Origin: a virus | IMG/VR virus record: IMGVR_UViG_3300046820_001584 | Location: 1 to 64,000 of that record | DNA: 64,000 nt | Reading direction: 5' to 3' (one strand) | Shown here: positions 1 through 63,217 of the stretch, piece by piece | How positions within the stretch are numbered: the first letter of the stretch is position 1 | Layout: each line of letters begins with the position of its first letter | Notes under the pieces: generated by a model | Seen by the model: only the letters and a program-made list of their open reading frames with translations | What the model was told of the DNA's origin: nothing | Databases searched by the model: none | Translations under genes and position numbers: made by a program

Positions 1-127
1 GTGGTTCTTCTGCAGGTGGTTCTTCTGCAGGTGGTTCTTCTGCAGGTGGTTCTTCTGCAGGTGGTTCTTCTGCAGGTGGTTCTTCTGCAGGTGGTTCTTC
101 TGCAGGTGGTTCTTCTGCAGGTGGTTC
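1..127 (-). repeat. 15-bp tandem repeat encoding PAEEP
   Basis: The plus-strand unit gtggttcttctgcag is repeated eight times without a mismatch (1-120), followed by a partial copy. On the minus strand it encodes Pro-Ala-Glu-Glu-Pro in frame. The array continues past the window edge, so the copy number is unknown. Identical copies suggest recent slippage or expansion, or an assembly collapse at the contig edge. Confidence 0.9.
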
Positions 128-1471
128 AGGCTGTGGCTGTGGTGTTGGTTCAGGCTGTGGCTGTGGTGTTGGTTCAGGCTGTGGCTGTGGTGTTGTTTCA
201 GGCTGTGGCTGTGGTGTTGGTTCAGGCTGTGGCTGTGGTGTTGGTTCAGGCTGTGGTAAAACATAAGATTGAATTGCTGCAACAGCAGTACTAACAAAAG
301 TAATAGCTGTATCAGCTAAAGTATTAGCAGTTGTGATCGCTGTTGTAGCCGTTGATTGGAGGGTTGTTAATGTTTGAGTCTCTGTTGTTAGTGTGGTTTG
401 AGCTGATGCAAGCGCTGTCACTGCTACTACTTTCACTTGCGTCTTATCTGTAACCACTGCTTCTGCTACAGGTACGGCAGCAACTGCTGTAACAGCAGCA
501 GCAACTAATGTTGGGTCTTGAGTGGTAGTAACTGTTGAAAATGCTGGTGCTTGTGGGAATGTGAAGTATCCAGTTCCATCGGCACGAATAATTACCCAAC
601 CTAAATTAACCGCTGCTCCTCCACCTCGTTCGTAATACCAAAGAACAAAGTCTTGTTTTTTATCTACAGATACATCAAAGTTTTTACTGTACGGGCTGTA
701 AGAAGTGCCCTGGTCTTTCCAGTTGTTTATTACTAATTCATTATCAATGTACAGCCTTGTGCCATCATCGGCATACGTGTTGTATTTAACTATAGATGCT
801 TCTTCTGGAAGAGTAATCGTTCCCTCAAATTTAACTATCACGTTATCTACTCTGCCTGAGTTAAGTACTTGACCATTGCCCCAATTATGAGAAAGTGAGG
901 CAACTGTAGTTGTTGAAAGAGGGGTTGTTTGAGCAGTAGGCAGTGGGGTAGCCGTGCTTCCGCTATACGCATAAGTTGTTGCTGTAACCCCATTAGTTGT
1001 AGTTGTAACAGTTGAAGACTCAGCAGCAGCCTGTGCTGTTGTTGCAGTTGTTTGAGCGGTAATTAAATCAGCCTGAGCGTTACTTAAGTTTGTAGTTGCT
1101 GTAGCCACTACCGCTGTTGCTGAATCAACGGTAGCAACGGCTTGCGTTACTACTGCTGTTTGAGAGTCAACAGCTGCAACTGCTGTAACCGCTATAGCTG
1201 TTGCGGACTCAGCCGCTGCAATTGCTGTTTGCGCTGCTGTTACTTCTGTAGCTGCTTCGGAAACTGCTTCTGGAGGGGCAATAGAGATTGCAGTAGATAA
1301 AGTTGCGGTTGCAGTTTCTATTTTTTCTTCAACAGTAATAATGGTTGGACTAACTATAACCTGTTCAGATGGCGCTGGTGGTTCATTAGCATTGGCAAAG
1401 TTAGGGCTAAAAAGGAAAAGCCAGCCGATTATAAAAAGGCTGGTTAAAAAGTACTTAATCTTTCTAGTCAA
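1..1471 (-). CDS. Secreted PA14-domain protein with proline-rich tandem repeats (3' end beyond window)
   Basis: The frame is open from a TTG start at 1471 to the window edge (490 codons seen). The start has an AGGAG Shine-Dalgarno 8 nt upstream. Residues 1-28 look like a signal peptide: basic MTRKIK, a hydrophobic stretch, then NANE. Next comes a low-complexity Ala/Thr/Val region (about 45-180), then residues about 205-292 resemble a PA14 domain, with YADDGTRLYIDNELV and a following ADGTGYF. Another Ala/Thr region leads to EPTPQPQP repeats (from about 405) and PAEEP repeats to the edge. PA14 domains usually bind carbohydrate, so an exported or surface adhesin-like role is inferred. A signal peptide is unusual for a virion protein. 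The family beyond PA14 is not recognised. Confidence 0.72.
   Translation of the reverse strand, partial: MTRKIKYFLTSLFIIGWLFLFSPNFANANEPPAPSEQVIVSPTIITVEEKIETATATLSTAISIAPPEAVSEAATEVTAAQTAIAAAESATAIAVTAVAAVDSQTAVVTQAVATVDSATAVVATATTNLSNAQADLITAQTTATTAQAAAESSTVTTTTNGVTATTYAYSGSTATPLPTAQTTPLSTTTVASLSHNWGNGQVLNSGRVDNVIVKFEGTITLPEEASIVKYNTYADDGTRLYIDNELVINNWKDQGTSYSPYSKNFDVSVDKKQDFVLWYYERGGGAAVNLGWVIIRADGTGYFTFPQAPAFSTVTTTQDPTLVAAAVTAVAAVPVAEAVVTDKTQVKVVAVTALASAQTTLTTETQTLTTLQSTATTAITTANTLADTAITFVSTAVAAIQSYVLPQPEPTPQPQPEPTPQPQPETTPQPQPEPTPQPQPEPTPQPQPEPPAEEPPAEEPPAEEPPAEEPPAEEPPAEEPPAEEPPAEEP
123..256 (-). repeat. 24-bp tandem repeat encoding EPTPQPQP
   Basis: About 5.6 copies of a 24-bp unit start at 123, 147, 171, 195, 219 and 243. 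The copy at 195 differs by one base, which changes Pro to Thr. In the minus-strand gene it encodes Glu-Pro-Thr-Pro-Gln-Pro-Gln-Pro, an extended Pro-rich stalk of the kind found in cell-surface proteins. Confidence 0.9.
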
Positions 1472-1514
1472 CTAAGGATCTCCTAAGTAATGCAATATTT
1501 TTGCTTACTTAGTA

Positions 1515-1520
1515 ATTATA
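1515..1520 (-). promoter_or_regulatory. Extended -10 promoter for the PA14 gene
   Basis: The minus strand reads TGC directly followed by TATAAT (1520..1515), an extended -10 box, about 44 bases before the TTG start at 1471. No good -35 hexamer is visible. The mRNA would have a leader of about 37 nt carrying the AGGAG ribosome site. Confidence 0.5.
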
Positions 1521-1557
1521 GCAGAATGTTAGTTTTAATAACTACATTATGTAAAAA

Positions 1558-2235: not shown

Positions 2236-2823
2236 ATGGAAAAAGTATACCTAGACGAAAATATATTTTATATAAATGACTTTTTATCGGAGCCATCTTT
2301 TAATTCATTTCTAGAAATGTGCGCTGAGTATGATAGTGAATTTATATATAAAGAAGACTTTTTTTTAAATCGTGGGTCTTTTAATATGTACGAACTCGAA
2401 ATGAAAGAATCCCACAAAATTGCATGGGAAGAGCTTACAGAAAAGCTAGAGAGTCTTTTCAACAACGACATACACAGCGTTGGCAAAAGAATGTCTCTCA
2501 CTAAATTTAAAAAATACGATCCAATTGAAAACAATAAAGATTTGTCCTTTGGAAGACATTCAGATGACTATGGGTTTATTAATGAGTCTAGCGGCGTAGA
2601 GTCTAACATAACTGCCATCTTTTTAGGATTAAACTACTACATTAACGATGACTATGAGGGTGGGGAAATATGTTATCCTCAAAAGAATATAAGAATAAAA
2701 CCTAAGCGTAATTCTATCTTATGTCATCCTGGCTCAAAAGAATACGAGCATGAGGTGACACAGATTTTTAACGCTGACAAATACACCTTCCCCTGTTTTG
2801 CAATAAATAATAATCTATTTTGA
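2236..2823 (+). CDS. 2OG-Fe(II) oxygenase (prolyl 4-hydroxylase-like)
   Basis: The only supported plus-strand gene in the window, 195 residues. It carries the double-stranded beta-helix iron site: His108 and Asp110 (GRHSDDYGF) and His172 (YEHEV). The core strand YYINDDYEGGEI recurs almost unchanged in the other phage oxygenases here. The 2OG-anchoring Arg after the last His is not evident; Lys182 occupies a similar place. The family hydroxylates peptidyl proline or other substrates using Fe(II), O2 and 2-oxoglutarate. It converges with the cupin gene at 2815, overlapping it tail to tail by about 9 bases. Confidence 0.85.
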   Translation: MEKVYLDENIFYINDFLSEPSFNSFLEMCAEYDSEFIYKEDFFLNRGSFNMYELEMKESHKIAWEELTEKLESLFNNDIHSVGKRMSLTKFKKYDPIENNKDLSFGRHSDDYGFINESSGVESNITAIFLGLNYYINDDYEGGEICYPQKNIRIKPKRNSILCHPGSKEYEHEVTQIFNADKYTFPCFAINNNLF

Positions 2824-3462
2824 GTTAGGGTGACTTATTATATCAAATATGCATGTTGACCTTATGGATGAGTTATCTAAAGCATGTATTGTTCCATATG
2901 GCAAGAATAGCATATCGTTTTTTTCTAAAATATATTCTTTAAAGTCTCTACCGACTGTGTCTATCTCAGACTCAAATGGGTCTGTATCCCTTGGCTCATA
3001 AATAAAATACTTTGAGTCACCTATTGCTTGCGTTAAAAGTACATGATGTCTGTCTTTGTGTGGTATAACTTTAGGACTGTTTTCAGCTAAATTGATTGAA
3101 AATTTTACATGAACAGAATAATAGATATCGGCATAAAGTCCTGCATCCTCTAAATCCCTTTTTATTCTTTTAACTTGATCATATTTTTTAGAATCTAGTT
3201 TGTTTTCTGCGTGTAGTAAATCTTGTGTATGAAAGGATACTGGTTGTTTTGAAGGAGTGCTTAGTCTAGAAAGCTTTTTATGCTTACTATTAAACACTTG
3301 AAGACCTTTATTGGATTCTGCAATCTCTTCACCATAAACAGTGTTATATGAAATACTAATTACATTGACCATATCTTCCCAATTAAAATCATAGTCCATA
3401 TATGACTTTATAAATAGTGGAGTTTTTGTGGCTATTGAATCTTTAATATTATCTATTAACAC
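2815..3462 (-). CDS. Cupin/JmjC-like 2OG oxygenase
   Basis: 215 residues from the GTG at 3462. This start was chosen because AGGAG lies 5 nt upstream and the upstream gene stops at 3464; an ATG at 3516 would overlap that gene by 53 bases. Residues 131-195 resemble the Cupin_4/JmjC iron site: His135-x-Asp137 (VIPHKDRHHVLL) and His193 (LPYGTIHAL), with a YFIYEP strand between. Known relatives hydroxylate protein side chains such as ribosomal residues. The substrate here is unknown. It lies among other oxygenases and small accessory genes. Confidence 0.7.
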   Translation of the reverse strand: MLIDNIKDSIATKTPLFIKSYMDYDFNWEDMVNVISISYNTVYGEEIAESNKGLQVFNSKHKKLSRLSTPSKQPVSFHTQDLLHAENKLDSKKYDQVKRIKRDLEDAGLYADIYYSVHVKFSINLAENSPKVIPHKDRHHVLLTQAIGDSKYFIYEPRDTDPFESEIDTVGRDFKEYILEKNDMLFLPYGTIHALDNSSIRSTCIFDIISHPNSK

Positions 3463-3463
3463 C

Positions 3464-3652
3464 TTAGCTCCTGTTATCCGTTTTATAAAAACCATTGCCT
3501 TTAAACTGTATACCAAATGGACTAAAGTGTCTTACCATTTGTGCTTCACATTCTTCACACTGGTACCCTGGATCATCTTCAGAGATGGAACGTGTAACAG
3601 CGAGTAATGCGTGTGATTCGTCTAATTTACACTTGTACTCATATACTGGCAT
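3464..3652 (-). CDS. FmdB-type zinc-ribbon protein
   Basis: 62 residues beginning MPVYEYKC, the signature of the FmdB/CxxC_CxxC regulatory zinc-ribbon family. Metal-binding cysteines are C8 and the CxxC of YQCEECEAQM. In many FmdB proteins the first knuckle is CxxC; here it is C followed by KLDESH, so His14 may serve. Function is unclear for the whole family; a nucleic-acid or regulatory role is usually proposed. It is one base upstream of the GTG of the cupin gene, and its ATG overlaps the stop of the DUF2061 gene. Confidence 0.8.
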   Translation of the reverse strand: MPVYEYKCKLDESHALLAVTRSISEDDPGYQCEECEAQMVRHFSPFGIQFKGNGFYKTDNRS

Positions 3653-4136: not shown

Positions 4137-4308
4137 CCGTTCTTTTAAGTGTTTTTCTTATTATAGAAGACGCTGTTGTTTTAAATGCAAATGGCAAAAA
4201 TGCATGAACTAAACATGCAATAGCAGCCTTTAGCAAAGAAAACACTATAAGCATGGCCTCATACAGGTGAGTAAAGTAATTTTCTTTCATGCTTTTGAGA
4301 TGGCTCAT
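4117..4308 (-). CDS. DUF6356 family protein
   Basis: 63 residues. The pattern SMKENYFTHLYEAM, a hydrophobic helix VFSLLKAAIACLVHA, then FLPFAFKTTAS matches DUF6356 (SYxxHxxxA ... HAxxPxxFxTTxS). One membrane-associated helix is likely. The family has no known function. It starts with ATG overlapping the stop of the APS-kinase fusion gene (ATGA), so it is translated with it. Confidence 0.72.
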   Translation of the reverse strand: MSHLKSMKENYFTHLYEAMLIVFSLLKAAIACLVHAFLPFAFKTTASSIIRKTLKRTDDRYAG

Positions 4309-5066
4309 ATACCCATCTCCTTACGCTTTTGCGTAGCAGAAATAGCATGAATGTCTGCCCCCAAGTCTACTTGTTCAATCTTATATCCAACATCTCTGCC
4401 ATATACAATGTTGGTAATGTTAGGTAGTCTTAGTACTAATGCACCGTCCATAAATTCATCTTTAGCAATATATTCTTTAACCTGATCAAACGTCAATGGA
4501 TCCTTCTCGCTAGTCTTATAAGTGTTTCTGACTCCAAGAAGCACCTGCTTTGTTCTACTCCCCGCCTTTTGATAAAGAGCATGGTGTCCTTCATGCCATG
4601 GTTGGTATCGACCAAGCATTAATGTAGTAGGTGCTGACCAATCATGCAGATTAAAGTATTGAATAATTACTGTAGCTTTTTGGTCTTGATCTAGCTTATG
4701 ATCTTCAAATGTTGCATCAAATTCTGTAGGACGCTCAAACATTTTGTTTGTGTCTTCAAATCGGCTCTCTTCAATTGTATCCATAAAAATTAAAATGTCT
4801 GGCTTACCAAATGCTGCACGTGTAAGTTCGGTTGGGCACACAAAGTCAACAATGACTGGCGCTACACCTTGCTTAGAAATTAGACGTGCCATCTCGCCCA
4901 TTCGTCTTGATTGCTCTAGTCTGTCATCTGGAGTAAATCCTAAATCAGAGTTTACCGTAGCTCTTACTTCATCAGCATTAAGATGTATTGCATTAATACG
5001 CTCTTTTAATGCTTTTGCTAGTTCTGTCTTTCCTGAGCCTGGTAGCCCAATAATCTGAATAATCAT
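4305..5066 (-). CDS. Bifunctional APS kinase-like / nucleotidyltransferase fusion
   Basis: 253 residues with two domains. Residues 1-about 125 form a P-loop kinase (Walker A GLPGSGKT, 7-14; HLNADEVR 28-35), like adenylylsulfate kinase/CysC. Residues about 145-253 form an HxGH-superfamily nucleotidyltransferase: LGRYQPWHEGH (151-161) with His158 and His161, and the C-terminal ISATQKR (242-248) matching ISxTxxR. Candidates are an NMN adenylyltransferase-like or cytidylyltransferase-like activity. The biochemical product is not deducible. AAGGAG lies just upstream of the ATG. Confidence 0.78.
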   Translation of the reverse strand: MIIQIIGLPGSGKTELAKALKERINAIHLNADEVRATVNSDLGFTPDDRLEQSRRMGEMARLISKQGVAPVIVDFVCPTELTRAAFGKPDILIFMDTIEESRFEDTNKMFERPTEFDATFEDHKLDQDQKATVIIQYFNLHDWSAPTTLMLGRYQPWHEGHHALYQKAGSRTKQVLLGVRNTYKTSEKDPLTFDQVKEYIAKDEFMDGALVLRLPNITNIVYGRDVGYKIEQVDLGADIHAISATQKRKEMGI

Positions 5067-5162
5067 AATACTCCTTAGTTAGTGAGCCTTTTAAACACAT
5101 GCCCAGGTGCAAACTGTACGCTTCCTACATATCCCGATGTCCACCGACGTACAGAATGTTAT

Positions 5163-5570
5163 TTATTTTTTAGACTTTGATCTTGCTTTAGCAAGTGCTT
5201 CAAAATCCTTTACTTTTGTATCGCCAAGGTATCCCCAAGCATATCCGTCATCAATCATCTTCTGATTTAACGAAACGGGTGAGTTGTCTAAAAATACCCA
5301 CCCTAAAATTCTTCCATACTTTTCAGAACTATCCATTTTTTCAGTTTTGATTACAACTGTTTTTGCAGAATCAATCTGAGTTTTTACGTAAGCTTTTGCC
5401 TCAAGGCCAAGAGCCTTTTCTGCTTTGTCTGTTGTTCTACTTTCTGGAGTGTCTATTCCAGAAAGTCTTACTCTAGAACTAAAACATATATCAAAGCCTA
5501 GGTCAATGTCAACATCTATGGTGTCTCCATCAACTACTTTAGTTACTTTTTTAACATAGTATTCAAACAT
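5163..5570 (-). CDS. Staphylococcal nuclease-like (thermonuclease) protein
   Basis: 135 residues of a single SNase OB-fold domain. It has VVDGDTIDVDIDLGF with Asp21, RVRLSGIDTPES with Arg35, Asp40 and Glu43, and KYGRILGWVF with Arg87, equivalent to the calcium-binding and two-arginine catalytic site. The family cleaves DNA and RNA. No signal peptide, so it acts in the cytoplasm, for example on host nucleic acid or in repair. Its ATG overlaps the TAA of the upstream IMPDH-like gene (TAATG). Confidence 0.85.
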   Translation of the reverse strand: MFEYYVKKVTKVVDGDTIDVDIDLGFDICFSSRVRLSGIDTPESRTTDKAEKALGLEAKAYVKTQIDSAKTVVIKTEKMDSSEKYGRILGWVFLDNSPVSLNQKMIDDGYAWGYLGDTKVKDFEALAKARSKSKK

Positions 5571-6568
5571 TATATCCTACTTCCTGATTCTTTTAGAGAT
5601 TGTGGCGAGACCTCTATGTATTGCAAATTATTTTGAAGCTCTTTAATATTCTCTGCGCCAGAATAAGTAAATGCACTTTTGGTATTGTTTAATATATTCC
5701 ATAGTCCTTCAAAAGCTGGCCCTCTGGATTCAATCTTTCCAGCAACGCCTTCAAAATTAAATATAGGATTTTTTACATCAGATATTCCTTCTTCTCTAGC
5801 AGCAAACTCTCTTGACCCCAAACCTATTAATGAATACTCACCGTTTTCTGATGTGCATTCATCATGTCCAGCTAACATATAGCCAAGCATTACGGCGCTT
5901 GCTCCAGCTCCTAAAGCCTTTACTATGTCCCCAGATGTTTTAATGCCACCATCTGCAATGATGCCATTGACCTCGTCATCTTTTACCATTTCATAGATGT
6001 TCATTATAGAAGAAAGAGTTGGTGCACCAAAGCCAGTCATTATTCGGGTAGTGCATGCTGCACCTCCTCCAATTCCAACTCTCACTGAGTCACATCCAGC
6101 ATCCATAAGCATTTTGTATGCGCCATAGGAAGATACGTTTCCGCACATAATATGTGTTGATCTAGGAACAATTTTTCTTAAATGAGATATTGCATCAGCA
6201 ACTAATTTTAGGTGGCCATTAGCAACATCCAGTAATATTATCTTGATATTACTTTTTATGATTTTATTAATAGCCTCTTCATTATAAACATCTTTTACTT
6301 TTATTGTAACAGCAACTCTTTTTGGATTAACCTCTAAAGACTTTTTAATTTTTAAATCTAGTAAGTCAGTTCTAACCGTTGTTCCTATACACCCAGAAGT
6401 TACTAAAATGGAAAGCATTTCTCTTGAAGAAATTGACTCCATTGGAGCAGAAATTATTGGAGACTCAAATTCTATAATTGCTTCTGGGTTATTAGGATTA
6501 CCTATTTTGGTTGTTAGATCTATATGAGATCTACTCAACAACGGAGAAGAGTCATTGGGCAACAGCAA
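5570..6568 (-). CDS. IMP dehydrogenase / GMP reductase family enzyme
   Basis: TIM-barrel enzyme of purine nucleotide interconversion. The catalytic cysteine loop is at about 166-175 (GIGGGAACTTR, Cys172), and the phosphate-binding ADGGIKTSGD follows at about 205. It has no CBS module, so its length (332) is closer to GMP reductase, but the motifs do not settle which reaction. The first canonical start is TTG 6568, yet the family N-terminus (GLCFDDILLLPN) is encoded in frame upstream with no ATG, GTG or TTG before a stop. An ATT at 6613, just after the endolysin stop and preceded by AAGAAG, may be the true start. Confidence 0.85.
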   Translation of the reverse strand: MLLPNDSSPLLSRSHIDLTTKIGNPNNPEAIIEFESPIISAPMESISSREMLSILVTSGCIGTTVRTDLLDLKIKKSLEVNPKRVAVTIKVKDVYNEEAINKIIKSNIKIILLDVANGHLKLVADAISHLRKIVPRSTHIMCGNVSSYGAYKMLMDAGCDSVRVGIGGGAACTTRIMTGFGAPTLSSIMNIYEMVKDDEVNGIIADGGIKTSGDIVKALGAGASAVMLGYMLAGHDECTSENGEYSLIGLGSREFAAREEGISDVKNPIFNFEGVAGKIESRGPAFEGLWNILNNTKSAFTYSGAENIKELQNNLQYIEVSPQSLKESGSRI

Positions 6569-6617: not shown

Positions 6618-7211
6618 TTACTTCTTTTTTACTGTTGTTGGCTTTGCTGCGGCCTTCTTGACCACTGGCTTTTCTACCTTTGGCTTAACTGCTTGTCCAA
6701 ATTTTGGTCGTCCAAATCCTACAATGCCTACAATCTGGCTTTTACGAAGCTTTGATCCATTCTTCTTCTTGTATGCACGATTCTTAAGACAGCATTCTCC
6801 GCCATTTCTCTGATCGCCTTTCTTATCTGAAGATGTATTTCCTTCTACAACATCTACTGTGCCATCTGTATTAACACCAACAACAATTCCTACGTGAGAA
6901 ATTCTGTCTACTCCGTCTGATGGGAAATCAAAATAAGCAATATCTCCGACTTCTGGTGTTGCTACTTCCGCCATCTGCCATGTTCCTGCCTTAATAAATG
7001 CTTGTGCTCCTGCTGGTGTATATACTGTATTAGGAACTTTTACTCCTGCTTGATCTGCACACCACATAACAAATGATCCGCACCATGGTTGAAAGTTTGA
7101 CTTTGTAAACTTACCATACTTTGTTTCATTATCTTTCGGTCCTTCAATAGTTCCAACTTCTGCTAGCGCTACCTCTACTAGTCTTGCTGCTGATCCCTGT
7201 ACTGCTGCCAT
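6618..7211 (-). CDS. CHAP-domain endolysin
   Basis: 197 residues. CHAP amidase/endopeptidase domain in residues about 10-130: catalytic Cys44 in FQPWCGSFVMWCAD, His106 in SHVGIVVG, and VVEGNTSS with Glu123/Asn125. These enzymes cleave peptidoglycan amide bonds. The C-terminal 30 residues are Lys/Pro/Ala-rich (VEKPVVKKAAAKP), a basic tail that may bind the wall. No signal peptide, so a holin would be needed; none is identified with confidence. A ribosome site (AAGGAG) and a TGC-TATAAT promoter lie upstream. Confidence 0.88.
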   Translation of the reverse strand: MAAVQGSAARLVEVALAEVGTIEGPKDNETKYGKFTKSNFQPWCGSFVMWCADQAGVKVPNTVYTPAGAQAFIKAGTWQMAEVATPEVGDIAYFDFPSDGVDRISHVGIVVGVNTDGTVDVVEGNTSSDKKGDQRNGGECCLKNRAYKKKNGSKLRKSQIVGIVGFGRPKFGQAVKPKVEKPVVKKAAAKPTTVKKK

Positions 7212-7249: not shown

Positions 7250-7277
7250 GCATTTATGGTATTAAAAAAACATGCTG

Positions 7278-7350
7278 TGCCGTCGGCAGGAATCGAACCT
7301 GCGACCTACTGCTTAGAAGGCAGTTGCTCTATCCCCTGAGCTACGAAGGC
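7278..7350 (-). tRNA. tRNA-Arg (anticodon TCT)
   Basis: 73-nt cloverleaf on the minus strand. The acceptor GCCTTCG pairs with CGACGGC with one T-C mismatch. The D arm contains GCTCAGGGGATAGAGC. The anticodon stem ACTGC/GCAGT encloses loop CTTCTAA, giving anticodon TCT. The T arm is GCAGG-TTCGATT-CCTGC. CCA is not encoded. It reads AGA codons, which this AT-rich phage uses heavily. Confidence 0.92.
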
Positions 7351-7355
7351 TTTAT

Positions 7356-7955
7356 TTAAATAGCTGGTATTTTAAGCTCGGTAGAAAGAAAGTTAGAATA
7401 TGAATATCTGTATCCACGCAAAATTTTATTTACTCCGTGGATACAGTTTTCTTCTGCGCTGTGTATAACCATGTCACCTGGGTTTGGAGAATATGTTATA
7501 CCTTGGTTAGAATAGTAAAGCTCTCCTCCTTCTTCAACGCTGTTAAAATAGACAACTAATCCATATTTTGTATCCTGTACTATTTGGTAAGGCTCTCCAT
7601 CTTTTAATAATAAACTTAGTTTTCTTTTTTCAATAAAATCATGATTATCTGAATGCTGTCCCCAGCTATCTCCCTCACGCATAACATTTATAGATGTATT
7701 TGGGTGCAGAGAAAATGAAGACCCAATCAGAGACTTGGCTTTATCTAAAACGTTTTGCAGATCATCAAGTGGCACTGACACTCTATTCTCAAAAGGTGTG
7801 CCGACTAGGTCTGGCTGAAATAACGAGTTGTCTTTTACTTTATTAAAAACTTGAACTAAACTATTAATTTCTTCTTCTTTTAAAAAGTTTTTGTATACAT
7901 ATATGTCAGAGCCTATTTTATCAAAACCCTTTTCTATAAAATATTGATCATTCAT
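7356..7955 (-). CDS. 2OG-Fe(II) oxygenase (prolyl 4-hydroxylase-like)
   Basis: 199 residues. Iron ligands His101 and Asp103 (GQHSDNHDF) and His173 (NCIHGV), with Arg183 positioned to bind 2-oxoglutarate. The core strand YFNSVEEGGELYY replaces the NDDYEGGE seen in the others, so this copy is more diverged. It sits between the two tRNA genes with a good ribosome site (GGAGG, 5 nt spacing). It probably adds a hydroxyl to a peptidyl residue; the substrate is unknown. Confidence 0.85.
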   Translation of the reverse strand: MNDQYFIEKGFDKIGSDIYVYKNFLKEEEINSLVQVFNKVKDNSLFQPDLVGTPFENRVSVPLDDLQNVLDKAKSLIGSSFSLHPNTSINVMREGDSWGQHSDNHDFIEKRKLSLLLKDGEPYQIVQDTKYGLVVYFNSVEEGGELYYSNQGITYSPNPGDMVIHSAEENCIHGVNKILRGYRYSYSNFLSTELKIPAI

Positions 7956-7974
7956 TTTTGCCTCCTATTGTCCG

Positions 7975-8048
7975 TGTGCCAAGTAGGACTTGAACCTACG
8001 ATTACCGAATTATGAGTTCGGGGCTTTAACCAACTAAGCTATTGGCAC
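7975..8048 (-). tRNA. tRNA with CAT anticodon (Met or Ile2)
   Basis: 74-nt cloverleaf. The acceptor GTGCCAA pairs fully with TTGGCAC. The anticodon stem CCGAA/TTCGG encloses loop CTCATAA, giving anticodon CAT. The T arm is GTAGG-TTCAAGT-CCTAC. It lacks the initiator hallmark of three G-C pairs in the anticodon stem, so it is elongator Met or the Ile2 type whose C34 is modified to lysidine to read ATA. Sequence alone does not decide. Confidence 0.9.
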
Positions 8049-59375: not shown

Positions 59376-60716
59376 CTAGTTTCTAATTATGAACGATTGT
59401 CCTAGAACTAGAACGTCTGGGTCAGTGAAGAATCTATATACTATAGAGGCATCTTCTACTGTATCAATTGACTCTACTGCTAAGTACTTAATATCTTCGT
59501 CAGATCTATAAACTATCTGATCTCCAATTTGCATATCCGCTGGGGTTACAAATTTATAAGTATTTCCTCTAAGTGCTAGAATTTCTTCTTGCAACGAGAA
59601 TCTTGCAGTGGCATCATTATTAACCATGAATGTCTTGTTTTGCAATGTGGCTTGTATTGAGAATATCTTTGACTCAATTACCTTTGAATTACCAAGATGT
59701 GTATCTTCCCATGTTGCTGGGTCGTACTCACCTTCATTTGGCAACTTATCAAATGATAAGCTTATTAGAATATCTCCAATTTTTATATCTTTAGCCATCT
59801 TGTAGCCTGTAGATGTAAGTATTAAAGTGTCTTCATTTATGCAACCAAATCTTGGCGGTGCAAAGAAGCCAGGTGGGAAGAACGGTGGCGCAAAGAAGTT
59901 AGGTGGGAAGAACGGTGGGAAGAATGGTGGGAAGAACGGTGGGAAGAACGGTGGCGCAAAGAAGTTAGGTGGGAAGAACGGTGGCGCAAAGAAGCCAGGT
60001 GGGAAGAACGGTGGCGCAAAGAATGCGGGTGGGAAGAACGGTGGCGCAAAGAAGCCAGGTGGGAAGAACGGTGGCGCAAAGAAGCCAGGTGGGAAGAACG
60101 GTGGGAAGAACGGTGCCTGAGTTGTAATAGTTGCTGTATTAGCTGAGGCTGCTGAACGTCCATTAGCATTGTCTGCATAAACATTGTAATACTGTGATGT
60201 ATTAGCGGCGTCATCAATTGTTGTAGATAACCCTGTTACATTGTCTCTGCTTGTTCCATCATTACCAGCTACAAAATACTTGGTGATTGCTTTTCCACCA
60301 TTTGCTGGAGCTGCCCATGAAATTGTATTCTGGTTAACGCCTGGAGTTGCTGATGGGCTTGTTGGAGCACTTGGAACTGTTGTTGCTGTAACAGCAGAAG
60401 CTGCTACTGCATTTGAATTGCTATCAAGGAAGCCATCATAAGATGATACTGAGAAAGTATAAGATGTTCCTCCTGATAATCCAGTTATTGTAGCGGTATT
60501 TGTGCCAAATGCAACTGTAGCTTTTACTGTTGCGCCGTCATATACCTTGTAACCAGTTGGCGTATTACCATCAACTGGTGCTGTCCAAGATACTGTTACA
60601 GCACCGTCATTAAATGCTCTGTTGGTACCAATATCAGATGCCGTGACACCTGTTACTGGATTTGGTCCAATAAAGTTATCTTGGGCGGAAGATTTTCTAC
60701 CTATATTTTTTGACAT
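59376..60716 (-). CDS. Fibronectin III / proline-repeat / Hint-domain protein
   Basis: 446 residues. Two fibronectin III domains (about 18-113 and 115-200). Residues 202-289 are a Phe/Pro/Gly/Ala repeat, unit FFPPGFFAPP with G, A or N at the fifth place. Residues 291-446 resemble a Hint (Hedgehog/intein) domain: Cys292 followed by INEDTLILTSTGYKMAKDIK and IGDIL, then a C-terminal FIIRN with the last residue Asn446. No extein follows. The block-B T-x-x-H is not visible (NNDATARF instead), so self-cleavage is uncertain. No signal peptide. It lies before the terminator and the oxygenase operon. Confidence 0.8.
   Translation of the reverse strand: MSKNIGRKSSAQDNFIGPNPVTGVTASDIGTNRAFNDGAVTVSWTAPVDGNTPTGYKVYDGATVKATVAFGTNTATITGLSGGTSYTFSVSSYDGFLDSNSNAVAASAVTATTVPSAPTSPSATPGVNQNTISWAAPANGGKAITKYFVAGNDGTSRDNVTGLSTTIDDAANTSQYYNVYADNANGRSAASANTATITTQAPFFPPFFPPGFFAPPFFPPGFFAPPFFPPAFFAPPFFPPGFFAPPFFPPNFFAPPFFPPFFPPFFPPFFPPNFFAPPFFPPGFFAPPRFGCINEDTLILTSTGYKMAKDIKIGDILISLSFDKLPNEGEYDPATWEDTHLGNSKVIESKIFSIQATLQNKTFMVNNDATARFSLQEEILALRGNTYKFVTPADMQIGDQIVYRSDEDIKYLAVESIDTVEDASIVYRFFTDPDVLVLGQSFIIRN
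59853..60110 (-). repeat. Tandem repeat encoding FFPPxFFAPP
   Basis: A 30-bp unit (plus strand ggtgggaagaacggtggcgcaaagaag with variants) recurs with shorter FFPP units inside. It encodes about 88 residues of Phe/Pro repeat, extremely hydrophobic and polyproline-like. Nearly identical codons suggest expansion by slippage. Confidence 0.88.
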
Positions 60717-60736: not shown

Positions 60737-63217
60737 TTACGCTTTCAAGTCTCCAGCTAACAACCAAGTTGTTGCTGCGACTTTTGTGGCTGTCACTGAT
60801 GAGTTTGTTGTTCTAAGTGTTGCACCTGGTGTTGCAAGAATTGTAACTCCAGATCCAGTTATGTTAGCACCAGTACCTGATGACTGGTAGAAGTTAATTG
60901 AAGAACCAATTGCATACTTAGCATTTCCTGTTGCTTCAAAGCTTACGTTTACTGCTCCTGATAGAGGGACCAATGAGTCTCTTACTGCGGCATCTGTTCC
61001 AAGTGCATCTAATGTTGAGTTAGATGAAACAGCTGTTGCTATTGTTGTAAGTGATGGTACACCAGCCCGTGTTTGAACCTTATCTGTAAATGCTACTCCA
61101 GCTGCTGCAACTGTTACTGTTCCAGTAAATGTTGGGCTAGCGATTGGTGCCTTTGCTGCAAGTCCAGTTGTAACTGTTGAAGCAAAGTTTGCGTCATCAC
61201 CGAGTGCTGCTGCAAGTTCGTCAAGGGTATTGAGTGCTGCTGGGGCTGATGCAATTACTGCATTTACCTGAGCTGTTGCATCTGCAATAGCCTCTGACTT
61301 AGCAGTTGCAATTGCTGAAGCCTGTGCTGTAGATACTGGCTTAGCTGAGTCTGCTGTATTATTAACATTTGCAAGTCCTACTGAAGACTTTGTAAGTGCT
61401 GCTACCGCAGTTGAAACCTTTGTATCTGCTGCTGTTCCAGCTGCAGTAATAGCTTCTGACTTAGCAGTTGCTACATTTGCTGTAGTTGCTAGAAGTGAAG
61501 TATCTGCAATGCCGTGAATGTTTGTTGTATCTGATTCGTGATTTGAAAGTGCTGTAGCTGCTGAACCAAATTGTGACTGCACAGAAGATGAAATTCCATC
61601 AAGATAACCTAGTTCTGTTGAGCTAAGATTTCCAATTGATGTTGTGCTTGGTAGCACTACTGTTCCTGTAAATGTTGGACCATCTAATGGGGCAAGGGCT
61701 GTTAGTGAAGCTCCTAGTCCGTCAATTTTACTTTGAGCAATTGCTGCGGTAGGGCTAATGTCTGCGTTTACAATTGTTTCATTTGTAATTTTATCAGATG
61801 TAATTGCTCCATTTATAATGTTTACTGTATTTATTGAGTTAGCTGCAACCTTTGCAGCAGTTACTGATGAGTCAGCAATCTTTGCAGTGCTAACTGCGCT
61901 GTCGGCAATCTTTCCATTTGATACTGATAAAGCTGCAATTTTGGCTTCAGTTACAGCATTTGTTGCAATCTTAGATGAAGTTACAGCATCTTCTGCAATC
62001 TTCTCTGTAGTGACTGCAAGTCCACCAATTTCATTTGTTCCAACAGAATCATCAGAAAGATGAGACTGGGAAATTGAATTAGCTGCAATCTTTTCTGCAG
62101 TAACTGCATTGAGTGCAATTTTAGCTGTAGTGACTGCATTTGGAGCAATCTCAGACTCTCCAACTGCATTGTCTGAAATCTTAGCGGCTGTAATTGAGTT
62201 GTCTGCAATCTTGGCTGCTGTTACTGCATTTTCTGCAAGATTTGCTGCAACAATTGATCCGTTTGGCAAAACTATTGTTCCAGTTAATGTTGGGTTATTT
62301 AGAACAGATTCTGTTGACTCTAATCTTCCAACTGCTATGGCATCTAATGATCCCTGTGTAAAATCAACTGTGGTTGTAGGCTCTGTTGTAACTCCCTTAA
62401 ATAACTTCCACTTGTCTTCTGAAGCATCACGCACAAATCCAGTGTGATTAAATGTTCCAGTGTTATGACCAGCAACAAAACCTAAGTCAAGCATTCCCGA
62501 CTGGTTTGCTTTTGCCATAAGAAGCATTGTGTCTTCAATCGCAAAGTTTTCGGTGTTAATTGTTGTCATTGTTCCATTGACTGCAAGATTACCGCTAATT
62601 GTAACATCCTTAGCAAATAAGTCTCCAGTTGTTGAAATGTCTGTAGTAAGAGAGCCTAGTGGCAACTCTGACTGTAAAATTTTAGTATTTGAATCTAACG
62701 AAGCAACTCCGCCTGCAGTTCCTCTATCTCCTGTTTCTAGGTATCCTGATAGTGAGCTGTTTAATCCGCTTACTGCAGTGTCAGTGTAATCTTCTGCAGC
62801 AGATATTGCTGCAGCCTGTGCTGCATTTGCTTTAGTAGTTGCATCTGACGCAGCTGCTGCGATTGCTTCTGATTTAGCATTTGCTGCTTTAGTGTTTGCT
62901 TCTGATGTAGCAAATGTTTTTGTTGAAACTACATCTGTGTCTACAGTTATAGTAATTGTATTTGCACCATCGTTATAAGTCTTTGTTAAACCTGCGCCCA
63001 TTGTTAAGGCTGTGTTAATTGCATCTTGGGAAATTTCACCAATTGCTACATCTGAGTTGTTGGCATATGCTAGGGCTGTCCATGTAGCTGTTCCATTACC
63101 AAACTTAAATAAATTAGTGTTTGTTTCAACACCCATTTCACCTGCAGCTAATACTGGATTTGCTGTGGTCCATTCAGAGGCTGTACCTCTTCTTACTTGA
63201 ATTCTTACTGTTGACAT
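60737..63217 (-). CDS. Tail fibre with Mtd-type N-domain and AKIxxNxV repeats
   Basis: 826 residues. The N-terminus IQVRRGTASEWTTANPVLAA then GEMGVETNTNLFKFGNG resembles the N-terminal module of Mtd-type fibres. Residues about 315-500 are a degenerate 10-11-residue repeat (AVTAAKIADNSI, AVTTEKIAED), a beta-helix-like stalk. Two Ala-rich coiled segments and a beta-rich C-terminus complete it. A GGGGTGG ribosome site lies before ATG. It is probably a long tail fibre. Confidence 0.72.
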   Translation of the reverse strand: MSTVRIQVRRGTASEWTTANPVLAAGEMGVETNTNLFKFGNGTATWTALAYANNSDVAIGEISQDAINTALTMGAGLTKTYNDGANTITITVDTDVVSTKTFATSEANTKAANAKSEAIAAAASDATTKANAAQAAAISAAEDYTDTAVSGLNSSLSGYLETGDRGTAGGVASLDSNTKILQSELPLGSLTTDISTTGDLFAKDVTISGNLAVNGTMTTINTENFAIEDTMLLMAKANQSGMLDLGFVAGHNTGTFNHTGFVRDASEDKWKLFKGVTTEPTTTVDFTQGSLDAIAVGRLESTESVLNNPTLTGTIVLPNGSIVAANLAENAVTAAKIADNSITAAKISDNAVGESEIAPNAVTTAKIALNAVTAEKIAANSISQSHLSDDSVGTNEIGGLAVTTEKIAEDAVTSSKIATNAVTEAKIAALSVSNGKIADSAVSTAKIADSSVTAAKVAANSINTVNIINGAITSDKITNETIVNADISPTAAIAQSKIDGLGASLTALAPLDGPTFTGTVVLPSTTSIGNLSSTELGYLDGISSSVQSQFGSAATALSNHESDTTNIHGIADTSLLATTANVATAKSEAITAAGTAADTKVSTAVAALTKSSVGLANVNNTADSAKPVSTAQASAIATAKSEAIADATAQVNAVIASAPAALNTLDELAAALGDDANFASTVTTGLAAKAPIASPTFTGTVTVAAAGVAFTDKVQTRAGVPSLTTIATAVSSNSTLDALGTDAAVRDSLVPLSGAVNVSFEATGNAKYAIGSSINFYQSSGTGANITGSGVTILATPGATLRTTNSSVTATKVAATTWLLAGDLKA

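What the first reader, a model, noticed from the sequence alone, without database searches (positions are those of the whole stretch)
1..1471. Secreted PA14 protein with expanding proline-repeat stalk in a phage
The gene has a TTG start, a signal-peptide-like N-terminus, a PA14-like domain and two kinds of Pro-rich repeats (EPTPQPQP, 24 bp; PAEEP, 15 bp, eight perfect copies and continuing). Phage virion proteins normally lack signal peptides, so this looks made for the host surface during infection. The 15-bp array has no mismatch, a mark of recent expansion.
Basis: partly seen in the sequence, partly recalled or inferred. Interest (0 to 1): 0.65.

Follow-up and report, generated by a model that had tools for sequence, protein, structure and literature searches.

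The report
Phage-encoded lectin-headed surface stalk protein
This is the first part of a gene by which freshwater viruses of bacteria appear to make an exported, sugar-binding stalk protein on the surface of the cell they infect; it belongs to a large, undescribed family of phage genes that seem to be kept at low output and are tied to the cell-bursting genes.

Summary
A 490-codon ORF (TTG start at 1471, minus strand) has a Sec signal peptide, a PA14 domain and two Pro-rich repeat arrays. It runs off the end of the viral contig inside a perfect 15-bp array.

Relatives supply the rest: A/T/V-rich spacers around one exchangeable head (PA14, SUEL lectin or an unassigned beta domain), a Pro-rich stalk, a conserved helical C-terminus with a hydrophobic helix and a basic tail. 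The family is in at least 577 viral contigs. It was not found in 84,980 cellular genomes or in 50,697 phage records.

The window gene is a chimera: leader and signal peptide from one lineage, head from another. Repeat number varies (5 to 18) between genes with identical flanks.

The stop codon overlaps the start of a conserved ~56-aa membrane protein in 130 of 135 loci. A CHAP endolysin follows within 4 kb in 74 of 112. Initiation looks weak throughout: TTG, ATA, ATT or CTG starts with a good Shine-Dalgarno, or ATG without one.

Best reading: a low-dose, membrane-anchored, glycan-binding stalk on the infected cell, acting with the lysis module. Export, glycan binding and role are inferred, not shown.

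The parts
1515..1523 (-). extended -10 promoter element TGCTATAAT (no good -35)
   Evidence: TGNTATAAT present in 36 of 36 unique leaders of this subfamily
1483..1512 (-). 5'-leader hairpin CTAAGTAAGCAA..TTGCATTACTTAG whose 3' arm abuts and partly covers the Shine-Dalgarno
   Evidence: fold z = -3.1; 96% of cells paired in 23 leaders, one G-C/A-U covarying pair; no Rfam family
1480..1484 (-). Shine-Dalgarno AGGAG
   Evidence: sequence; SD-to-start spacing of 8 nt in most of this subfamily
2..1471 (-). stalk-protein gene, TTG start, cut by the contig end (490 codons present)
   Evidence: family
1388..1471 (-). Sec signal peptide MTRKIKYFLTSLFIIGWLFLFSPNFANA
   Evidence: translation; conserved in relatives
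914..1387 (-). A/T/V-rich spacer 1 (48% Ala+Thr)
   Evidence: composition
581..913 (-). PA14 head (aa 187-297)
   Evidence: Pfam above cut-off; AlphaFold pLDDT 87.7; Foldseek to RsgI3 PA14 E 7e-7 and to sugar-binding MpAFP PA14 E 1e-4
257..580 (-). A/T/V-rich spacer 2
   Evidence: composition
122..256 (-). 24-bp repeat array (PEPTPQPQ), 5.6 copies
   Evidence: TRF
1..127 (-). 15-bp repeat array (PPAEE), 8.5 copies, continues past the contig end
   Evidence: TRF; copy-number variation in relatives

Best explanation
The gene encodes a phage-made surface protein of the infected cell. It is transcribed from its own extended -10 promoter and translated at a low rate. It is exported through Sec and stays in the membrane by a C-terminal helix with a basic, probably cytoplasmic tail (present in relatives, cut off here). 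It holds a single sugar-binding head away from the membrane on A/T/V-rich spacers and a Pro-rich stalk of variable length. Its partner is a ~56-aa membrane protein whose start codon overlaps the stalk's stop codon. Because the pair usually sits at the head of the lysis genes, I take its job to be surface-linked lysis: binding the outermost glycan or protein layer of the host so that this layer is loosened or detached when the membrane and wall are opened. Shown by sequence: the anatomy, head exchange, overlap and pairing, lysis neighbourhood and weak start sites. Inferred: export, topology, ligand and function.
For: Signal peptide and C-terminal hydrophobic helix: KD19 >= 1.6 at the N-terminus in 196 and at the C-terminus in 216 of 217 full-length relatives, followed by a Gly-rich and RRRKP/GRRKW tail. 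Head: PA14 in the window, SUEL lectin above cut-off in L096; A0A6J5NGG5, annotated 'SUEL lectin', carries the same C-terminus. Heads are swapped on one scaffold: window leader and nt 1-126 are 88-92% identical to loci with the unassigned head, nt 230-1161 are 72% identical to PA14-head L004. Partner: the ~56-aa membrane gene starts at an NTG overlapping or touching the stalk stop in 130 of 135 loci, and a separate search with the partner found the stalk directly upstream in 76 of 80. Lysis: small membrane ORF within 1.5 kb in 110 of 112, CHAP protein within 4 kb downstream in 74 of 112 against 13 of 70 upstream; that CHAP protein matches endolysin PHROGs. Low output.
Against: No protein data. 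No ligand is known. The membrane anchor rests on hydropathy, and Ala/Val-rich helices can be soluble. In the window itself the CHAP gene lies upstream (6618-7211), with metabolic genes between, and the downstream side is missing. A lysis neighbour does not prove a lysis function. The C-terminal model matches no solved structure.
Confidence: 0.45

Rival explanations
1. Superinfection exclusion or adhesion: the displayed head masks or binds the host receptor glycan so that other phages cannot adsorb, or makes infected cells stick to other cells or particles. The anatomy is the same but the job is unrelated to lysis.
For: Surface anatomy and exchangeable lectin-like heads; heads recombine like recognition parts; own sigma-70-type promoter element, which could act early.
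Against: Near-obligate coupling to a small membrane protein and a frequent endolysin just downstream. No direct test.
Confidence: 0.3
2. Virion or tail-fibre protein that happens to start with a hydrophobic stretch.
For: Phage fibres are modular and exchange heads; genes next to holins in phages of Gram-positive hosts are often receptor-binding proteins (general knowledge).
Against: Conserved signal peptides with AxA (219 of 220); no PHROG match for the protein; the tail genes lie tens of kb away in this phage.
Confidence: 0.1
3. The stalk ORF works partly as a leader for its partner: a weak start, a long ORF and Pro-Pro stretches that slow ribosomes delay and limit translation of the overlapping membrane protein, a translational timer for lysis.
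For: Weak initiation kept by two routes; overlap in 130 of 135 loci; partner small and hydrophobic, near an endolysin.
Against: Partners may be translated independently; the conserved C-terminus and heads show that the stalk protein itself is selected; no holin family matched the partner.
Confidence: 0.1

Closest known systems
PA14 carbohydrate-binding domains of adhesins (MpAFP RTX adhesin, Flo1/Flo5, Epa) and of RsgI3
   Same: Fold and the invariant DDG motif; a single head carried on a long repetitive protein
   Different: Made by a phage; other heads sit on the same scaffold; low sequence identity (about 10-24%); no ligand known
'TerB_like' and 'SUEL lectin' proteins of uncultured Caudovirales phages (A0A6J5NEV5, A0A6J5NGG5)
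   Same: Same conserved C-terminal region; probably members of this family
   Different: Named only by domain hits; no function, partner gene or start-site feature found described
Spanins (Rz/Rz1)
   Same: Pro-rich, envelope-spanning, encoded with lysis genes (general knowledge)
   Different: No lipobox on the stalk, lectin-like heads, much longer, probable actinobacterial hosts without a typical outer membrane
Phage-encoded surface adhesins PblA/PblB (PMC4508584)
   Same: Phage proteins that act as adhesins on the host surface
   Different: From general knowledge those are tail proteins without a signal peptide; here there is a signal peptide and no tail locus

Membership tests
PA14 domain (PF07691) | profile score above the curated cut-off | tested here: met
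   30.2 bits vs 24
PA14 domain (PF07691) | beta-sandwich PA14 fold | tested here: met
   pLDDT 87.7, Foldseek prob 1.00 to 6qe7 and 6x8a
PA14 lectin | binds a sugar through Ca2+ and a DcisD motif | not testable with these tools
   DDG is invariant in 25 PA14 heads of the family; binding not tested
Sec-exported protein | n-region, h-region and AxA cleavage site at the true N-terminus | tested here: met
   forced TTG start; AxA-like motif in 219 of 220 relatives; pattern evidence only, no trained predictor run
Tail fibre / receptor-binding protein | encoded in the tail module or matches tail families | tested here: not met
   no PHROG; tail genes elsewhere
Spanin | lipoprotein or u-spanin signal on the protein | tested here: not met
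   no Cys lipobox seen in the stalk N-termini; a separate small lipoprotein gene is present downstream in some loci
LPXTG wall-anchored protein | LPXTG before a C-terminal hydrophobic stretch | tested here: not met
   C-termini of 32 full-length members
TerB domain (PF05099) | profile score above the curated cut-off | tested here: not met
   21.1 bits vs 24.4
SEC10/PgrA surface exclusion (TIGR04320) | profile score above the curated cut-off | tested here: not met
   18.7 bits vs 70, in the low-complexity spacer
Holin (for the ~56-aa partner) | holin family match | tested here: not met
   no PHROG family and no NCBIfam family near its cut-off; best Pfam hit below cut-off

The most novel reading that the evidence does not exclude
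A phage-only two-gene module in which a lectin-headed stalk gene is kept at low translation by selection (even AUA, AUU and CUG start codons, or AUG without a Shine-Dalgarno) and is coupled by overlap to a small membrane protein, so that stalk translation doses or times lysis.
Probability: 0.15. Interest if true: 0.82.

Novelty: new variant of a known kind. Interest (0 to 1): 0.62.

Why it matters
It describes what looks like a widespread but unnamed surface-protein module of freshwater phages, absent from the phage-isolate records and cellular genomes searched, with swappable sugar-binding heads. Phages are known to recombine receptor-binding parts of the virion; here the same play is seen in a protein that seems to be shown by the infected cell. 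The family is also a natural experiment on start sites: many lineages reach weak initiation by either of two routes, including AUA starts, which makes a question about selected low expression directly testable with reporters.

Tried and rejected
A DNA-pattern scan of viral contigs for the LRxFAA motif mostly returned chance matches. PHROG and NCBIfam gave no family for the stalk. The TerB and SEC10/PgrA hits lie below cut-off and were not used. Foldseek of the C-terminal model against PDB gave nothing (best E 1.0). The idea that the contig closes on itself through the repeat was rejected. The idea that the nearby 2OG-Fe(II) oxygenase genes hydroxylate the prolines was left as a lead only: such genes were seen in several of these phages but no co-occurrence test was done. 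WhiB was not found in this record, but in L017 it lies about 2.5 kb past the stalk gene, on the side missing here. Literature searches found no description of the family. One script statistic on partner identity used a faulty register and is not used.

Full report
What is there. The first 1,471 bases of the window hold, on the minus strand, a 490-codon ORF that starts with TTG and runs off the first base of an 85,740-bp IMG/VR record. The start is forced by an in-frame TAG directly upstream, with AGGAG at 8 nt. The N-terminus reads as a Sec signal peptide ending in ANA. Pfam PA14 covers aa 187-297 above its cut-off. The other end of the record has no array, so the gene is simply cut by the assembly.

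The family. The same profile found nothing in 84,980 bacterial and archaeal genomes, and a member C-terminus found nothing in 50,697 phage records. These are pattern-seeded or BLAST searches, so distant relatives may be missed. Full-length members share one plan: signal peptide, A/T/V-rich spacer, one globular head, A/T/V-rich spacer, Pro-rich stalk, conserved helical region, hydrophobic helix, Gly-rich and basic tail. A few members carry other spacers. Clustering of heads gave two large groups, 68 with an unassigned beta-type head and 33 with PA14, plus small ones. One member, L096, has a SUEL lectin domain above its cut-off.

Head and C-terminus. The PA14 head of the window folds with pLDDT 87.7 and matches RsgI3 PA14 (E 7e-7), the sugar-binding PA14 of the MpAFP adhesin (E 1e-4) and the flocculins. 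DDG is invariant among the 25 PA14 heads aligned. The C-terminal region folds as mostly helices with a 29-residue last helix (pLDDT 75.7). It matches no solved structure but matches three proteins of uncultured Caudovirales phages at E < 1e-5, two of them named 'TerB_like' and 'SUEL lectin'. Hydropathy gives a candidate membrane helix at the C-terminus in 216 of 217.

The window gene is a chimera. Its leader and first 126 nt are 88-92% identical to loci whose head is of the unassigned type; nt 230-1161 are 72% identical to PA14-head L004; nt 943-1166 are 85% identical to L007; and the 15-bp array is 100% identical to arrays in L023, L080 and L153. Heads therefore appear to move between scaffolds by recombination.

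The repeat. Near-identical genes differ in repeat number: L042 has 18 and L043 5 copies of PPAEE with 100% identical flanks of 1,683 and 639 nt; L049 and L040 have 6 and 14. The 10-residue repeat of other members varies as well. Short-read assembly can collapse arrays, so the exact numbers are uncertain, but the variation across several sets supports fast change in length.

Neighbourhood. In 130 of 135 loci a conserved ~56-aa membrane protein starts at an ATG, GTG or TTG that overlaps or touches the stalk's stop codon (alignment). Three more have a related sequence after a TTGA overlap. A search started from the partner found the stalk directly upstream in 76 of 80 loci; of the other four, two are cut by the contig end and two have another small gene between. 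The partner is also absent from cellular genomes and phage records searched. Downstream, a small membrane ORF lies within 1.5 kb in 110 of 112 and a CHAP protein within 4 kb in 74 of 112, against 13 of 70 upstream. CHAP proteins of this kind match endolysin PHROGs. In the window the CHAP gene is upstream at 6618-7211 and the downstream side is missing.

Weak initiation. In the LRxFAA class, the codon three before the conserved Leu-Arg is a start-type codon in all 47 unique 5' ends counted: ATA 19, TTG 14, ATG 8, ATT 4, ATC 1, GTG 1; the QLNASRPF class uses CTG (3 of 3) and the window's class TTG (23 of 23). Twenty-six of 110 unique 5' ends have no ATG, GTG or TTG between the upstream in-frame stop and the hydrophobic core. 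By clusters of similar sequence, 22 non-ATG clusters all have a Shine-Dalgarno at 5-12 nt, while the 6 ATG clusters have none or one at only 3-4 nt (Fisher p = 3e-6 by cluster). The one GTG case is probably mis-registered and was left out of that test. Neighbouring genes mostly use ATG: 22 of 22 for the 136-aa membrane protein, 66 of 69 for CHAP, 17 of 18 for FmdB, and the first two mostly have a normal Shine-Dalgarno. Clusters are not fully independent, the test was formed after seeing the pattern, and the starts are inferred, not mapped. In the window's subfamily there is also a conserved extended -10 element (36 of 36) and a leader hairpin whose 3' arm abuts the Shine-Dalgarno (z = -3.1; 96% of cells paired with one covarying pair).

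Function. The anatomy argues for an exported, membrane-anchored, sugar-binding stalk made in small amounts and paired with a small membrane protein. The lysis neighbourhood makes a lysis-linked surface role my first choice; superinfection exclusion or adhesion is a close second. A virion role is unlikely because of the signal peptide and the distance from the tail genes. A host among the freshwater actinobacteria is likely from the WhiB gene beside relatives (L017) and from the description of WhiB as a marker of actinophages (PMC10202952), but WhiB was not found in this record, which is incomplete.

Limits. Everything here is computed from sequence. The unassigned head has no Pfam family. The loci come from short-read metagenome assemblies and many are near-duplicates; counts were made on unique sequences where stated.

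Noticed in passing
window 2236-2823 (+), 7356-7955 (-), 2815-3516 (-); L003:68-637: Two 2OG-Fe(II) oxygenase-like ORFs (just under the Pfam cut-off) near the stalk gene and two JmjC/cupin ORFs in the record; a prolyl hydroxylase acting on the Pro-rich stalk is conceivable.
   Followed up: no
window 59860-60115: Array of 12/30-bp repeats (GGTGGGAAGAAC) inside a putative tail protein ORF at 59376-60716.
   Followed up: no
window 62083-62238: Diverged 30-bp repeats (about 5 copies, 68%) in the tail-fibre ORF 60737-63217.
   Followed up: no
window 4305-6568: Possible auxiliary genes: an ORF with a P-loop/APS-kinase-like N-terminus, a thermonuclease-like ORF and an IMP dehydrogenase/GMP reductase homologue, between the stalk gene and the CHAP gene.
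   Followed up: no
window 7277-7350 and 7974-8048: tRNA-Arg(TCT) and a tRNA with a CAT anticodon; the latter could be Met, initiator or Ile2 (reads AUA), not resolved.
   Followed up: no
L042:8774-9061: A holin-like small membrane ORF matches PHROG 26427, which is labelled 'nuclease'; the label looks wrong.
   Followed up: no
L017:8760-8766 and other KW-ending members: The C-terminal Lys-Trp of these stalk proteins is encoded by AAATGGTAA, which also holds the partner's ATG, so the overlap may explain the KW ending.
   Followed up: partly
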